Positions 9,331 through 17,787 of a stretch of DNA of 28,336 nt are shown piece after piece. Source of the DNA: a virus; the IMG/VR virus record IMGVR_UViG_3300017948_000008, positions 1 to 28,336 of that record; one strand, 5' to 3'. Positions within the stretch are counted from its first letter, which is position 1, and each line of letters opens with the position of its first letter. The notes beneath the pieces were generated by a model. The model was not told the DNA's origin. It did not search any database and saw nothing but the letters and a program-made list of their open reading frames with translations. Position numbers and translations under genes: made by a program.

Positions 9331-11580
9331 ATGAACGAGACTTTAGATCCGGCCCTACTGGACCGCATCCTGCGGGGCCGGGAAAAGGAGCCCTGGCCCC
9401 CCGCCAATTACGTAGACGAGTTTGCGCGTCGGCAAAAGCGCCTTCTGCGGATACGCTCAGATCCGGCTCTGCTGGTGGGCGCCAAGGAATATTATCGAAC
9501 GAACCCCCTGGATTTCGTGTCTCACTGGGGAACTGTGTCGGAACCCCGTGCCGCAGGCGGCACAGACCAGGATTTAACTAAAATACCTTTTGTGCCGTTC
9601 CGCAGGCAAAAAGAGTTTATACAGTTTTTGTATCAACTCCTGCAGGACCAGGAATCCGGTCTTGTCGAAAAATCCCGTGACATGGGGGCAACATGGGTCT
9701 GCTGTTTATTCTCTGTTTGGGTTTTCTTGTTCTGGCCCGGCGCCGCCATTGGCTGGGGTAGCCGCGACGCAGACCTCGTTGACAAACGCGGCGATCCTAG
9801 CTCGATTTTGGAGAAGATAAGAATCATTCTCCGTAATATTCCTCGGGAGTTTCTTCCCAAGGGATTTTCCGCAAGGGAACATTTATCTTATATGAGGATA
9901 TCAAACCCGGAGTCTGAGGCGGTTATAACGGGGGACGCGGGTGAGAATATCGGGCGTGGAGGTAGATCGTTAGTATTTTTCAAAGATGAAGCGCAGCCCG
10001 GTACCGCTAAAATACTGACCCCGGCAGGTTACCAGACCATGGCGGACATGGTTGTGGGATCACGTGTTATTGGGGAAGACGGACTCGCACACAACGTTAC
10101 ACAAGTAAAAGATTGTGGGGTTTACGATATTTATCGAGTAACTTTTAACGACGGTACTTCTGTGGAATGTAGTCCAGGCCATCTATGGACTATGGCACAT
10201 TCCAGGCCCGGAGCGGCTTTTACATTATCTACACTAGATATTGCAAAGAATCTTCCCACACGTAAGTATATAGTACCAACGCATGCTCCTGTAGTATTTG
10301 ATGAGGATTTCCATCCAGATGAAGAATTATTCCTCCAATCTCGCGGAGGCTGTACAAGGGAAGTTGTTGGCGTGACTGCGGTTGGGCGCGGTCCAGTCCG
10401 TTGTATCTCTGTAGATGCTCCACATGGTTTGTACCTAACTGACCACTGTATCGTTACTCATAATTCGGCACATTATAAGTACGCCGAAATGGTGGAAGCC
10501 GCACTATCCGACAACGCACTCATCCAAGTAGATATTTCCTCAGTCGGTGCCCCAGGAAACGTTTTCCACCGCCGTCGTGAATCCGGCGTGGATTGGACCC
10601 CCGAGCGCAAAGACTATCCCAAAAGTCAGGTTCGCGTTTTCGTCATGGACTGGAGCGACCACCCTGCCAAAACCCAGGAATGGTACGATGGTCGTAAGAA
10701 GAAAGCCACGGAAGAAGGCCTTCTTCATGTGTTCGCCCAGGAAATCGATCGGGACTATTCCGCCTCTATCGAAGGCGTGATCATCAACAGCGAATGGGTG
10801 CGCAGCGCCGTAGACGCGCACCTAAAGTTGGGCTTTGACGACACAGGGGGTTGGGTAGCTGGTCTCGACGTTGCTGATGAGGGCGGCGATACGACAGCGC
10901 TTGCCATCCGCAAGGGTGTGATCCTTCGCGAGGTCCGGGAATGGGGTGATCGCGACACAGGCGTCACCACACGCACGGCTGTAGCGGCCTTACGTGACAA
11001 ATGCCCCGTGGACCTGCAGTACGATTCTGTCGGCATGGGCGCAGGCGTAAAGGCCGAGGGGAACCGCCTCGCGCAGGAAAAGAAGATCCCGCGAGGCCTG
11101 CGCTTTGTGCCCTGGAATGCAGGGGCACAGGTCCTGTTCAAGGATCGGCGGGTTGTCCCAGGAGACAAGAACTCCCCAAAGAACAGCGATTTCTACCTCA
11201 ACCTCAAGGCCCAGGCTTGGTGGAATCTGGCCCGGCGTTTCGAGCACACGTACCGTGCGCTGACGGATCCCAATTTCACGTTCGATGTGGATGATCTTAT
11301 CTCTTTACCTTCGAGTCTTCCGTTGATCCAGAAAATCATCAAGGAGCTTTCGCAGCCTACGGCCTCCTACAATAGCCGCATGAAACTGGTCATCGATAAA
11401 CGCCCAGATGGTATGCGCTCTCCGAACCTGGCGGACGCTATTGTGATGGCTTACTGGCCCATCACGGCAGGGAAGCCGATGAAAATCACACCCGAGATCT
11501 TGGCAAGGGCCGCTGTGCCGATGCGCAGGAATCCCTTTCCACCTGCGTTCTCAACCAATTATGGTGGCAGAAGACGTTGA
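9331..11580 (+). CDS. terL: Terminase large subunit (TerL) interrupted by a class 3 mini-intein (749 aa precursor)
   Basis: Packaging ATPase/nuclease that drives phage DNA into the capsid. Extein features: Walker A-like SRDMGATW (115-122); Walker B LVFFKDE ending in Asp219-Glu220; RNase H-fold nuclease acidic residues Asp513 (AGLDVADEGGDTTA), Asp565 (LQYDSVGMG) and Asp702 (SPNLADAIVMAYWP). The intein occupies residues 221-378. Removing it joins FFKDE to SAHYKYAEMVEAALSD, restoring the usual continuous TerL motif, and gives a mature protein of 591 residues. GGGTGGAAT precedes the ATG. No small terminase was recognised nearby. Confidence 0.95.
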   Translation: MNETLDPALLDRILRGREKEPWPPANYVDEFARRQKRLLRIRSDPALLVGAKEYYRTNPLDFVSHWGTVSEPRAAGGTDQDLTKIPFVPFRRQKEFIQFLYQLLQDQESGLVEKSRDMGATWVCCLFSVWVFLFWPGAAIGWGSRDADLVDKRGDPSSILEKIRIILRNIPREFLPKGFSAREHLSYMRISNPESEAVITGDAGENIGRGGRSLVFFKDEAQPGTAKILTPAGYQTMADMVVGSRVIGEDGLAHNVTQVKDCGVYDIYRVTFNDGTSVECSPGHLWTMAHSRPGAAFTLSTLDIAKNLPTRKYIVPTHAPVVFDEDFHPDEELFLQSRGGCTREVVGVTAVGRGPVRCISVDAPHGLYLTDHCIVTHNSAHYKYAEMVEAALSDNALIQVDISSVGAPGNVFHRRRESGVDWTPERKDYPKSQVRVFVMDWSDHPAKTQEWYDGRKKKATEEGLLHVFAQEIDRDYSASIEGVIINSEWVRSAVDAHLKLGFDDTGGWVAGLDVADEGGDTTALAIRKGVILREVREWGDRDTGVTTRTAVAALRDKCPVDLQYDSVGMGAGVKAEGNRLAQEKKIPRGLRFVPWNAGAQVLFKDRRVVPGDKNSPKNSDFYLNLKAQAWWNLARRFEHTYRALTDPNFTFDVDDLISLPSSLPLIQKIIKELSQPTASYNSRMKLVIDKRPDGMRSPNLADAIVMAYWPITAGKPMKITPEILARAAVPMRRNPFPPAFSTNYGGRRR
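9991..10464 (+). mobile_element. Class 3 mini-intein in TerL (158 aa, no endonuclease)
   Basis: In-frame insertion encoding AQPGTAKILTPAGYQTM... and ending IVTHN before Ser+1. Residue 1 is Ala rather than Cys/Ser. The three diagnostic class 3 residues are all present: Trp66 two residues after the block B His (SPGHLW), Cys138 at block F position 4 (PVRCISV) and Thr156 at block G position 5 (IVTHN). His157-Asn158 end the intein. Length and content leave no room for a homing endonuclease. The insertion lies between the Walker B Glu and the following Ser, a highly conserved site. Confidence 0.93.
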
Positions 11581-11830: not shown

Positions 11831-12291
11831 GCTACATGTGCGAGTGTAACACCTGCCTTGCAGCCCGTTCGTTCGCACGGGATGCCAAGCCGAGTGGATT
11901 GGGCGCCAAAATGGCAAACGATCCGCTGCAGTCGGGCAAGTCCCAAAAGGTTGTGAGTCATAACATAAAGGTAGAAAAAAACGCGGGTAAGCCCCAGAAG
12001 CAAGCCGTCGCCATCGCTCTCAACAAATCCCGTGAATCCGAGGACGACGATCCCGGCATGGGCATGATGGACGTGGAGGACGAAAAAGAGTTCGGTGTCG
12101 AGCGCAAAAAGAAGCACTTGGGGGAAAATTCCGGTGCGGAATTTTCGGTGGAGTCGATCCGGCAAAAGGTACGCCGTAGCAAGCGGACAGGCCGCTTTGG
12201 GGCACGGCCTTCTGCGAAGGCAGGCGCCCGTGACGGCTTCGAAGAAGGTGGAGAAGTCGAAGAGCCCATGACGGCCAAATATCGTGCCTGA
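11827..12291 (+). CDS. Phage protein with QKVVSHNI/QAVAIAL motif (154 aa)
   Basis: An N-terminal CECNTC cysteine cluster is followed by GKSQKVVSHNIKVEKNAGKP and QKQAVAIALNKS, a motif seen in many small phage proteins near the head genes. The remainder is highly charged (DDDPGMGMMDVEDEKEF; KKVRRSKRTGRF-like basic section) and likely disordered. It overlaps the portal start by 8 bases. The protein may contact DNA or act in head assembly; unproven. Confidence 0.65.
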   Translation: MSYMCECNTCLAARSFARDAKPSGLGAKMANDPLQSGKSQKVVSHNIKVEKNAGKPQKQAVAIALNKSRESEDDDPGMGMMDVEDEKEFGVERKKKHLGENSGAEFSVESIRQKVRRSKRTGRFGARPSAKAGARDGFEEGGEVEEPMTAKYRA

Positions 12292-14791
12292 TCCCGCTGA
12301 GAAGGCCCCCTTGGACAAAGGCCCGCTAGACTGGCAGGCGGCGCTTGCGCGGGCGAAACAGGTCGCAAGCCAATCACATCTTCGTGTAGACCCTTTCGCG
12401 TCTACGCGCAGCGCACATCCTCCTGGCATTGAAAAGGTATCTGGAAACGCTGCTGATGAAAGCATCGCGAGCATAAAAGCCGTTTCCGGTTGGGCCAAGG
12501 ATGATTGGAATCAGCTTGCAGGCACAGGCCTCGCGATATCCAGCATATTTGCCGAAGGCCTGGAATTTCCTGGTTACCCATTTCTTTCTGCGTTAGCGCA
12601 GCGCCCCGAATATCGGGCTATGGTGGAAATAACCGCCACGCAGATGACTCGCAAGTGGATACAGTTGCGGTCAACCGACAGTGAGGACGAGGAGAAGGCT
12701 AAGAAGATTGCTGACTTGGAAAAAGAGTTAGATCGTCTTCAGGCGCGAGACTGCTTCCGACGTGCGGCCATGTTGGACGGTTATTTCGGGCGATCTCATC
12801 TATACATTGACACTGGAGACACTAATAGCCCGGAGGAACTAAAAACTTCGCTTGGCAATGGCCGTGACGCGATGTCGAAGCAGAAGTTCAAGAAAAACAA
12901 GAAACATATTAGAAAACTAAAGGTCGTCGAGCCGGTTTGGTGTTATCCAACCAGCTATAATGCTAGCGATCCTTTGTCGGACAATTGGTACACGCCTGAG
13001 ACATGGTTTGTCATGGGCAAGGAGATTCACGCATCTCGGCTGCTCAAATTTTCAATGCGGGAAGTTCCCGATCTTTTGAAGCCTGCTTATTCATTTGGAG
13101 GCATATCTCTTTCGCAACTGGCGAAGCCTTACGTAGATAACTGGATTCGGACACGTCAATCCGTGGCGGATATTGTCCACGCATTTAGCGTGTTCGTGCT
13201 GTCTTCGAATATTGCTGAGACGCTTCAGCCTGGGGGTGAGCAATTATTTCAACGTGCCGATTTGTTTAATCTGATGCGCGACAACCGTGGTTTGATGCTG
13301 ATTGACAAGGATTCGGAACTTTTCCAAAACGTATCGGCACCTCTTGGTAGTCTTGATGCTTTGCAAGCACAGACTCAAGAGCATATGTGCCTTCCCGCAG
13401 AAGCCTTGATCACAACGACGCGCGGCCTGATAGCGATCAAAGACGTGACTACAAATGATCGTGTACTAACGCGTGTTGGTTTTGCGCCTATAAAATGGGT
13501 AGGTGTAACAGATACACGAGAATCTTTGGTAGAGATCAAGGCTGGTGGGGCTGTTTTGCGGGTAACGGAGGAGCATCCTGTATGGGTGGAGTCGATAAGC
13601 GAGTTTGTCAGTGCGCGGAATGTAAATCGTTCCCACCACCTACTCGCTCTCAAAACAAAAAACCAGGGAAATATGGAGAATCTGTCGCATGGCGAGGGCG
13701 TTGGTGGACATGTGACCCCCGTTATTTCCATAATTCAAAAGCTGGGGGCAATCTTCATCATGTCATGTGGGAGGCGCACAAGGGGCCTATTCCGCAGGGC
13801 TATGACGTTCATCACAAAGACGGTGATGGACACAACAATAGCTGGGACAATCTTGAACTTCTATCGCGCAAAGTACACCACGCGCAACACGTTAGAGTCG
13901 GATTCGATGTGCCAGTCTCTAATGAAAAATGTAAAAAAGTATGTGAAGTCTGCGGTAATCAATACGAAATATCGTATCGTTCAGATCTTGCCATTCGCGC
14001 CCGATATTGTTCCGTTGCCTGTAAGTGGCGTGCCTGGAGGATTCGTAGTGGATGGACTCCGAGCACGCATTATAAACAATGCATTGAGTGCAGTGCAGAC
14101 TTTACCAGTAAACTTAGCCACACACGATTCTGTTCTAGCAGATGCGGTCAGCGTGCCAGTTACGCTCGTAAACGTGATCGAAGTTCCAAAACAACCGGTA
14201 TATAATATTGAAGTTGCAGAAGGATGGCCTCAAGAATTTTTTGCAGACGGATTACTTGTTCACAATAGTACCGTCTGCCGGGTGCCTTTGATCTTTCTCA
14301 CAGGCATCACCCCTTCGGGCTTGAATGCTTCCAGCGAAGGCGAAATTCGGGTCTTCTATGATTGGATCGAGGCGTGCCAAGAAGTTTTATTCAGACCTAA
14401 TCTAACAAGAATCATTCATTTTGCAATGCTAAATCTTTGGGGAGAGGTAGACGAGACCATTGTATTTAACTTTGCACCATTGTGGAGTCTGGACGAAACT
14501 GCCTTGGCTAACAAGCGTAAGCTCGATGCAGATGCCGATGTGCATTTGCTCGACGCAGGTGTTCTATCTTCGTTGGAAATCAGGAAGCGAATTGCTGGAG
14601 ATCGGGATTCGCCATATACGTCGCTCGACGTAGAGGATGTGCCTGAACTTCTTGTCGAAGAAGCAGAGGGTTTGGAGCCAGCCGGTGGACGGCCAAATCC
14701 TCTGGCCCTAAAAGCAGCGGGAATAAGTGATCCTAAAGAGGAGAATCATCCTGGCAATACCTCTGAGAAAGACAACGCGAAAGAAGTTTGA
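12284..14791 (+). CDS. Portal protein (DUF1073-type) interrupted by an intein (835 aa precursor)
   Basis: Forms the dodecameric ring through which DNA enters the head. The N-terminal extein has the DUF1073 pattern: LSALAQRPEYRAMVEITATQ, ARDCFRRAAMLDGYFGRSHL, VVEPVWCYPTSYNASDP, RLLKFSMREVPDLLKP and GSLDALQAQTQEHM. After the intein (369-661) it continues STVCRVPLIFLTGITPSGLN and EGEIRVFYDWIEACQE. Joining QEHM to STVCRVP recreates the conserved family motif. The mature product would be 542 residues. GTG start overlaps the previous gene; its ribosome site is weak. A second protein is encoded out of frame inside the intein. Confidence 0.93.
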   Translation: MPDPAEKAPLDKGPLDWQAALARAKQVASQSHLRVDPFASTRSAHPPGIEKVSGNAADESIASIKAVSGWAKDDWNQLAGTGLAISSIFAEGLEFPGYPFLSALAQRPEYRAMVEITATQMTRKWIQLRSTDSEDEEKAKKIADLEKELDRLQARDCFRRAAMLDGYFGRSHLYIDTGDTNSPEELKTSLGNGRDAMSKQKFKKNKKHIRKLKVVEPVWCYPTSYNASDPLSDNWYTPETWFVMGKEIHASRLLKFSMREVPDLLKPAYSFGGISLSQLAKPYVDNWIRTRQSVADIVHAFSVFVLSSNIAETLQPGGEQLFQRADLFNLMRDNRGLMLIDKDSELFQNVSAPLGSLDALQAQTQEHMCLPAEALITTTRGLIAIKDVTTNDRVLTRVGFAPIKWVGVTDTRESLVEIKAGGAVLRVTEEHPVWVESISEFVSARNVNRSHHLLALKTKNQGNMENLSHGEGVGGHVTPVISIIQKLGAIFIMSCGRRTRGLFRRAMTFITKTVMDTTIAGTILNFYRAKYTTRNTLESDSMCQSLMKNVKKYVKSAVINTKYRIVQILPFAPDIVPLPVSGVPGGFVVDGLRARIINNALSAVQTLPVNLATHDSVLADAVSVPVTLVNVIEVPKQPVYNIEVAEGWPQEFFADGLLVHNSTVCRVPLIFLTGITPSGLNASSEGEIRVFYDWIEACQEVLFRPNLTRIIHFAMLNLWGEVDETIVFNFAPLWSLDETALANKRKLDADADVHLLDAGVLSSLEIRKRIAGDRDSPYTSLDVEDVPELLVEEAEGLEPAGGRPNPLALKAAGISDPKEENHPGNTSEKDNAKEV
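13567..13573 (+). promoter_or_regulatory. Internal Shine-Dalgarno for the nested HNH gene
   Basis: GGAGGAG, 8 bases before the ATG at 13582 in the HNH frame. In the portal frame the same bases encode the Glu-Glu of the intein block B T-E-E-H motif. Confidence 0.6.
13582..14205 (+). CDS. HNH homing endonuclease nested out of frame in the portal intein (207 aa)
   Basis: A likely DNA endonuclease that would promote homing of the intein. In the -1 frame relative to portal: HHVMWEAHKGPIPQGYDVHH, KDGDGHNNSWDNLELL and SRKVHHAQHV form a full HNH motif (His pair at 13810-13815, Asn at 13849, His near 13876-13890). Two zinc-finger-like Cys sets follow (CEVCG...YCSVAC and CIECS...FCSSRC), as in free-standing phage HNH enzymes. 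The chosen start has GGAGGAG 8 bases upstream; residues 1-27 overlay block B and look non-conserved. Alternative expression by -1 frameshift at 13657-13663 is possible, and the frame is also open back to an ATG at 13495. It stops inside block F of the intein. Confidence 0.85.
   Translation: MGGVDKRVCQCAECKSFPPPTRSQNKKPGKYGESVAWRGRWWTCDPRYFHNSKAGGNLHHVMWEAHKGPIPQGYDVHHKDGDGHNNSWDNLELLSRKVHHAQHVRVGFDVPVSNEKCKKVCEVCGNQYEISYRSDLAIRARYCSVACKWRAWRIRSGWTPSTHYKQCIECSADFTSKLSHTRFCSSRCGQRASYARKRDRSSKTTGI
13657..13663 (+). promoter_or_regulatory. Candidate -1 ribosomal slippery heptamer
   Basis: A AAA AAC in exact phase with the portal frame (ACA AAA AAC). Slipping back one base continues as CCA GGG AAA TAT in the HNH frame. 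It lies just where recognisable HNH-protein sequence begins. GGAAATA soon after it and TATTTCC around 13723-13729 could pair downstream, but no strong pseudoknot was worked out. Confidence 0.45.
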
Positions 14792-16677: not shown

Positions 16678-17787
16678 GTGAACGCCCCCCTCGCCCTAGC
16701 ACCATCGTCGGCCATTCCCATGGGTGGCCGGCGCTCATCTAAAAAAGCCGCTGACGCAAAGATCGTCGCGGCTGGGATACTTATCGTTGCCAGCAATCAG
16801 ACTGCGCTTTTCCTGAAGCGCAGTAAAGAGGGCGATCATTCTGGAGAATGGTGTATTCCTGGAGGAAAGTGCGAGGACAAAGAGCCTTTGGATGTTTGCG
16901 CCATTCGTGAAACCCGTGAAGAAACGGGCTGGGTTGCCGAAGGTGATTTGACCAAGATTTATTCAGGAGAGACCATTCCGGGTGTAACGTTCACGACATT
17001 TCGTACCGATATACAAAATCAATTCATCCCAACCTTGGATTCTGAGCATACTGGTTACGCATGGGCGCCTTTACACGATCCTCCCGAGCCGGTTCATCCG
17101 GGCCTTCGCGCGGTCTTGGACAATATGAATCTTCGCGCATCAGATAATATGCCCTTACGTATTGCCAAGGACAAGAAGTCGGTACGATCATTTGATCCGG
17201 ACGGACGGCTTCATGTTGCCGTGACCAACATAAGTAAGGCCTGTGTCAATCCATACTATGGCCATGAAATTCCTGGGTACGAGATACTCGGCCTGGAGCC
17301 TAATAAAATATACAAACTTCTTCGTGATCCGGAAGAATTGCAAAAAGCAGTAGATTCTTATAATGGTGTTCCGTTACTATTGCAACATCAGGCCGCCACG
17401 GCAGATGATCATCCCAGCGATCTTGTAATCGGCGCGACGGGAACGGACGCCGAATTTGTTTACCCGTACCTGCGAAATTCGCTGGTAATCTGGCCGGAAC
17501 ATGCTGTAGAGTTGATTGAGAGTGGGGAACAGAAAGAACTTTCTTGCGGCTACCGCTATACACCTGATATGACTCCCGGTACTTTCAAGGGTGAGCCGTA
17601 CGATGGTGTGATGCGGGACATTGTTGGCAACCACGTCGCTCTTGTTAAAGAAGGTCGTGCGGGATCTGATGTTGCAGTAGGGGATAGAGCGTTGATCGTG
17701 CCGGAAGACGTTGCTTGGGTCCTCCTGGAGCACGCGATAAAGAGCATGAGACACCGAAGCGATGGGAAAGTTCAGCGAAGCGCTTAA
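16678..17787 (+). CDS. Fusion of a Nudix hydrolase and a DUF2213 head protein (369 aa)
   Basis: Residues ~27-145 are a Nudix domain with an intact box at 63-85 (G-x5-E-x7-REUxEExGU; catalytic RETREETGW), predicting hydrolysis of a nucleoside-diphosphate-linked substrate. Residues ~170-350 match DUF2213: [40 protein letters not shown] and [20 protein letters not shown], a family thought to act in prohead assembly or as maturation protease. GTG start 7 bases after the previous stop. The end overlaps the scaffold-like gene by 26 bases. Confidence 0.85.

What the first reader, a model, noticed from the sequence alone, without database searches (positions are those of the whole stretch)
13561..13600. 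Intein block B codons double as the Shine-Dalgarno of the nested endonuclease
GGAGGAG (13567-13573) is 8 bases before an ATG (13582) in the HNH frame. In the portal frame those bases are part of ACG GAG GAG CAT, the T-E-E-H of block B, whose Thr and His assist splicing. One stretch may therefore serve a protein active-site motif and a ribosome binding site, giving independent translation of a 207-aa HNH protein from the portal mRNA.
Basis: partly seen in the sequence, partly recalled or inferred. Interest (0 to 1): 0.75.

Follow-up and report, generated by a model that had tools for sequence, protein, structure and literature searches.

The report
Nuclease gene hidden in intein's -1 frame

Summary
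Observation confirmed to the base: GGAGGAG 13567-13573, ATG 13582, in the block B codons ACG GAG GAG CAT of a portal intein (13388-14266). Relatives show what matters. In 17 distinct inteins of this subfamily the HNH gene lies in the -1 frame, has a start codon at one of three positions around block B, and continues into a CxCxxC motif written in the -1 frame through codons that are also structural in the intein. The silent third bases making those cysteines are invariant (17/17) although the intein residue changes, and intein-frame silent variation falls from 0.63 to 0.41 just past the ATG. So the -1 frame is translated from about block B: internal initiation, not frameshifting at A_AAA_AAC 13657, which lies downstream. 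The specific Shine-Dalgarno claim is weaker. Relatives with the same ATG and intact HNH spell block B as GAA GAG, AAA GAG or GAA AGC and lack the signal; given the amino acids, SD strength is not above chance here (p 0.14; subfamily p 0.13). It is enriched in a wider, TerL-type set (p<=0.001). The layout recurs in 68 loci, always -1, which stop-codon composition explains. Precedent: out-of-frame HNH 'ShiLan' insertions, which lack a splicing domain.

The parts
12284..14791 (+). portal protein gene (Phage_portal_3 / phrog_146) interrupted by the intein
   Evidence: PF06381 230.6 bits; phrog_146 E 7.7e-92 in two stretches
13388..14266 (+). intein, 293 aa, Cys1 to His-Asn, +1 Ser
   Evidence: intein-free portal L001 (88% identical) reads QEHL|STVCRVP at the insertion point; Hint fold by AlphaFold2 plus Foldseek to gp41-1 and other inteins
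13565..13576 (+). block B T-E-E-H codons ACG GAG GAG CAT
   Evidence: TxxH invariant in 11 aligned inteins
13567..13573 (+). GGAGGAG, Shine-Dalgarno-like, duplex energy about -9.5 kcal/mol
   Evidence: not conserved
13582..13584 (+). ATG start codon of the nested HNH gene (spans GTA TGG of the intein frame)
   Evidence: start codon at this or one of two nearby positions in 17/17 relatives; only start before the Cys motif in 9/17 or so
13582..14205 (+). HNH endonuclease gene, 207 aa, -1 frame relative to portal
   Evidence: HNH_3, phrog_15471; AlphaFold2 mean pLDDT 87.6; substitutions fall at HNH-frame third positions
13582..13666 (+). dual-coded segment 1: intein residues 66-93 (Hint strands) and HNH residues 1-28
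   Evidence: reduced silent variation in the intein frame, permutation p 5e-4; both frames ordered in models
13606..13623 (+). C9-x-C11-x2-C14 of the HNH protein (TGT 13606, TGC 13612, TGT 13621), made by third bases of F-V-S-A-R-N-V in the intein frame
   Evidence: 17/17 relatives; sum log10 P -33.8 under synonymous null, treating loci as independent
13657..13663 (+). A_AAA_AAC slippery-type heptamer in the portal frame; considered and rejected as the expression route
   Evidence: 4 of 12 relatives have it; no stem-loop after it, z +0.77; lies downstream of the selected -1-frame cysteines
13667..14131 (+). intein-frame linker residues 94-248, an overprinted reading of the HNH gene
   Evidence: pLDDT below 50 throughout; intein-frame identity 33% against 54% in the HNH frame
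14135..14205 (+). dual-coded segment 2: start of the Hint C-terminal part and the C-terminal helix of HNH
   Evidence: both ordered in models; not tested further

Best explanation
This is a phage portal intein (class 1, Hint fold) that carries its HNH homing endonuclease as a nested gene in the -1 frame on the same strand. Reading the portal frame gives the portal precursor; the two Hint pieces (residues 1-93 and 250-293) fold together around a disordered linker that is the wrong-frame translation of the nuclease gene, and the intein splices out (inferred). A second ribosome starts inside the same mRNA at the ATG made by the GTA TGG codons just after block B and makes a 207-aa HNH protein whose first 28 residues, including a CxCxxC knuckle, are written in codons that also encode intein strands (coding constraint shown; translation inferred). 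In this phage GGAGGAG in the block B Glu codons is the likely Shine-Dalgarno for that start (plausible, not shown). The nuclease presumably cuts intein-free portal alleles, such as the one in L001, so that the whole element homes (inferred).
For: Start codon in 17/17 relatives at -13, -4 or +8 from the block B His, against 7.2 expected from synonymous recoding, ATG 15 against 2.0. Cys trio 17/17 with invariant T at three silent sites while the middle residue varies among S, N, D, P, R, A; the scan that found most of them allowed TTC and AAC. Silent variation in the intein frame is 0.625 before the ATG and 0.408 after it, permutation p 5e-4. Codon-position pattern switches from the intein frame to the HNH frame. 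Intein model confident except over the HNH-only stretch. TerL-type set: ATG correctly placed in 48 of 56 against 12.4 expected; SD stronger than null, p<=0.001.
Against: No expression data. SD strength at the block B start is not above a codon-choice null in the window (p 0.11-0.14) or in its subfamily (p 0.13), and several relatives have no recognisable SD. Relatives share ancestry, so the product of per-locus probabilities overstates independence; the changing middle residue partly answers this. The host's anti-SD was assumed standard.
Confidence: 0.82

Rival explanations
1. Block B codons are selected as a true dual-use element: GAG GAG is kept because it is both the T-E-E-H motif and the Shine-Dalgarno.
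For: GGAGGAG with good spacing in the window; AAAGGAG in L187; SD enriched in the wider TerL-type set.
Against: L167/L190, L200 and L163/L182 keep ATG and HNH without it; p 0.11-0.14 in the window, p 0.13 in the subfamily.
Confidence: 0.25
2. HNH is made by programmed -1 frameshifting at A_AAA_AAC (13657-13663) as a portal-intein-HNH fusion.
For: The heptamer is in the right frame and the HNH homology to other families begins just after it; 4 of 12 relatives have A_AAA_AAC/G there.
Against: 8 of 12 relatives lack it; the selected -1-frame cysteines lie upstream of it; no stem-loop after it (z +0.77); start codons are conserved instead; no canonical heptamer was found between the start and the cysteines.
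Confidence: 0.06
3. The HNH frame is a dead remnant of a formerly in-frame endonuclease, or a sequencing frameshift, and only the intein frame is translated.
For: None beyond the lack of expression data.
Against: Same frame in 68 loci; HNH-frame third-position substitution pattern and 54-68% identity against 33-46% in the intein frame; start codons and SD in the wider set above null.
Confidence: 0.04

Closest known systems
ShiLan-type hidden HNH insertions in actinobacteriophage DNA methylases (PMC11855218)
   Same: HNH with zinc fingers in an alternate frame, host frame open through the insertion, translation route unsolved, inferred homing
   Different: The authors find no self-splicing domain and no RBS; here the insertion is a complete Hint intein, the HNH start lies in splicing-motif codons, and an SD is present in this phage and enriched in the TerL-type set
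Canonical inteins with an in-frame endonuclease domain
   Same: Nuclease inserted between the two Hint halves at the usual place
   Different: Nuclease is a separate reading frame and, by inference, a separate protein
Fractured genes with split inteins and free-standing endonucleases (Dassa 2009; known to me, paper not held)
   Same: Nuclease gene lies between intein halves; Vibrio phage 1.238 TerL (L034) looks like such a case with HNH in the -1 frame of the N half
   Different: Here the intein frame stays open, so no trans-splicing is needed
Free-standing phage HNH_3 endonucleases beside TerL (for example FBPa53, Poludnitsa, Acinetobacter phage BP10)
   Same: Same HNH family with C-terminal zinc fingers
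   Different: Not inside an intein

Membership tests
class 1 intein | Cys/Ser/Thr at position 1, block B TxxH, C-terminal HN, +1 Cys/Ser/Thr | tested here: met
   C1, T60-E-E-H63, H292-N293, Ser+1
class 1 intein | Hint fold | tested here: met
   AlphaFold2 pLDDT about 95 outside the linker; gp41-1 TM 0.86, BIL 0.83 by target length
class 1 intein | precise empty allele | tested here: met
   L001 portal lacks the intein at the same point
class 1 intein | protein splicing | not testable with these tools
   needs expression
HNH_3 homing endonuclease | HNH_3 profile above curated cut-off and His-Asn-His core | tested here: met
   57.1 bits against 24.8; H77 H78 D80 N90 H99 conserved
HNH_3 homing endonuclease | cleavage of the empty site and homing | not testable with these tools
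   needs assay
ShiLan-type hidden HNH insertion | out-of-frame HNH with host frame open | tested here: met
ShiLan-type hidden HNH insertion | no splicing domain in the insertion | tested here: not met
   complete Hint domain
programmed -1 frameshift gene | conserved in-frame slippery heptamer plus stimulatory structure | tested here: not met
   4 of 12 relatives; z +0.77
Shine-Dalgarno conserved in block B codons | SD kept in relatives with intact nested HNH | tested here: not met
   L167/L190, L200, L163/L182

The most novel reading that the evidence does not exclude
Phage inteins, mostly in TerL and portal genes, form a widespread class in which the homing endonuclease is an overprinted -1-frame gene with its own internal start; in the portal subfamily that start sits in the block B active-site codons and the first stretch is functional in both frames (Hint strands in one, a cysteine knuckle in the other). 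This may be a bridge between free-standing nuclease genes, canonical inteins and split inteins.
Probability: 0.7. Interest if true: 0.75.

Novelty: new variant of a known kind. Interest (0 to 1): 0.6.

Why it matters
How hidden out-of-frame HNH genes are translated is stated as an open question in the ShiLan paper (PMC11855218). Here codon-level selection gives a concrete answer for one family, namely internal initiation at a fixed place, and shows the layout is common and missed by annotation: in Tetrasphaera phage TJE1, Acinetobacter phage Highwayman and Rhodobacteraceae phage MD07 the region is annotated only as TerL. It also suggests a route to split inteins, since losing the open intein frame would leave two intein halves around a working nuclease gene, as seems to have happened in Vibrio phage 1.238.

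Tried and rejected
Programmed -1 frameshifting: tempting because A_AAA_AAC is in the right frame just before the HNH homology; rejected because selected -1-frame cysteines are upstream and the site is not conserved. The uniform -1 frame as proof of a frame-dependent mechanism: rejected, because free-standing HNH genes of this family average 5.75 stops in the frame that would hold the intein and 17.0 in the other, so -1 is simply the easier frame to keep open. Internal promoter for a separate mRNA: consensus matches are at the shuffle rate (3 found, 2.5 expected) and the only + strand one lies past the start. Local RNA structure at the start: nothing unusual, z 0.03. Direct searches with the window HNH or with its Hint-N half found no relative in viral contigs; profile and DNA-pattern searches did. 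Foldseek of the HNH model had no significant PDB match; the best nuclease match was I-HmuI, E 0.08, and the profile matched I-HmuI weakly, E 0.0028. One script tested the wrong Cys positions and was redone; its start-codon counts are unaffected.

Full report
GGAGGAG lies at 13567-13573, eight bases before ATG 13582, and in the portal frame those bases are the T-E-E of block B. The portal ORF 12284-14791 carries an intein at 13388-14266; a relative without it (L001, 88% identical) reads QEHL|STVCRVP across the point. The ORF from ATG 13582 to 14205 is an HNH_3 nuclease with C-terminal zinc-finger-like Cys pairs. It lies in the -1 frame; the portal frame is open throughout and the third frame has 23 stops.

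The arrangement is common. A profile of the HNH family was scanned against viral and genome contigs (the viral list was cut at 80 loci). In 68 loci, including the window, the HNH lies out of frame inside a long open frame, nearly all with intein motifs on both sides (one, L132, does not show them), every time in -1. Most are at a TerL site, some in portal genes; these gene labels are by inspection. Named phages with the layout are Tetrasphaera phage TJE1, Acinetobacter phage Highwayman and Rhodobacteraceae phage LS06-2018-MD07. The uniform frame needs no mechanism: in free-standing members the frame that would become the intein averages 5.75 stops and the other 17.0.

How is the HNH translated? 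Two routes were compared. A_AAA_AAC at 13657-13663 is in the portal frame and would shift ribosomes into the HNH frame just before the part shared with other HNH families. But in the window's own subfamily the homology extends upstream of it, to the block B start codon. An unbiased DNA pattern that allowed either codon for Phe and Asn, together with the protein scan, gave 17 distinct inteins. All have a start codon in the HNH frame at one of three positions around the block B His, and all make C-x-C-x2-C from the third bases of F-V-x-A-x-[NS]-V. Phe is always TTT, x always ends in T although it is S, N, D, P, R or A, and the last codon is AAT or AGT. Under synonymous recoding with each gene's own codon usage the chance per locus is 0.001 to 0.13. 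Intein-frame silent variation drops from 0.625 to 0.408 immediately past the ATG, permutation p 5e-4. In about half of the 17 the block B start is the only start codon between the last stop and the cysteines. Since these cysteines precede the slippery site, translation in the -1 frame must begin upstream of it. The slippery site is present in only 4 of 12 relatives, and no stem-loop follows it.

The Shine-Dalgarno claim was tested separately. The window has a strong SD (-9.5 kcal/mol), but Glu-Glu often produces one: p 0.11-0.14 with amino acids fixed. L187 (AAAGGAG) is similar. L167/L190 (GAA GAG), L200 (AAA GAG) and L163/L182 (GAA AGC) keep the same ATG and an intact HNH with almost no SD. 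With start codons fixed, the subfamily mean is not below the null (p 0.13; an earlier 12-locus version gave p 0.047). In the wider TerL-type set, where the start lies after the conserved intein blocks, SDs are stronger than the null (p<=0.001) and the ATG is where it should be in 48 of 56 loci against 12.4 expected. So SD-led internal initiation is supported for the family at large, while its location in block B here looks like an opportunistic, lineage-specific use.

Structure agrees. AlphaFold2 gives the intein as a confident Hint domain in two pieces (residues 1-93 and 250-293) and a disordered stretch 94-248, which matches the HNH-only DNA; Foldseek finds gp41-1 and other inteins. The HNH model is confident (mean pLDDT 87.6), including residues 11-20 of the cysteine knuckle, though residues 21-30 are weaker (65). 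Substitutions switch from intein-frame third positions in Hint-N (51-58%) to HNH-frame third positions in the nuclease (47-52%), where identity is 54-68% in the HNH frame against 33-46% in the intein frame.

Known work: hidden out-of-frame HNH insertions without a splicing domain are described in actinobacteriophage methylases, with translation unexplained (PMC11855218). I found no held paper on a -1-frame HNH inside a complete intein, but a preprint from the same group on non-canonical intein architecture is not held and may report some.

Shown: sequence layout, start codon and cysteine conservation, coding constraint in both frames, Hint fold prediction. Inferred: internal initiation as the physical event, use of the SD in this phage, splicing, zinc binding and homing.

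Noticed in passing
9997-10464: The terminase large subunit gene in the same window carries a second, short intein without nuclease, beginning with Pro after DEAQ and showing a possible class 3 signature (Trp in block B, Cys in block F, Thr before HN, by motif memory).
   Followed up: partly
L034 (Vibrio phage 1.238.B TerL): HNH lies in the -1 frame but the intein frame is broken by stops and the C half is annotated as a separate hint protein: looks like a split intein derived from a nested one.
   Followed up: partly
L166 / L199 (same contig): One portal gene carries two inteins at two nearby sites (after QEHMA and after GLNA), each with its own nested -1-frame HNH.
   Followed up: partly
L212 and L035: Acinetobacter phage BP10 has the HNH as a free-standing gene next to the terminase small subunit, while Acinetobacter phage Highwayman has a relative nested in its TerL intein.
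   Followed up: no
16678-17787: A NUDIX domain is fused to a DUF2213 domain in one ORF.
   Followed up: no
14135-14205: The 3' end of the HNH gene also overlaps ordered intein sequence: the C-terminal helix in one frame, the first strand of the Hint C part in the other.
   Followed up: no
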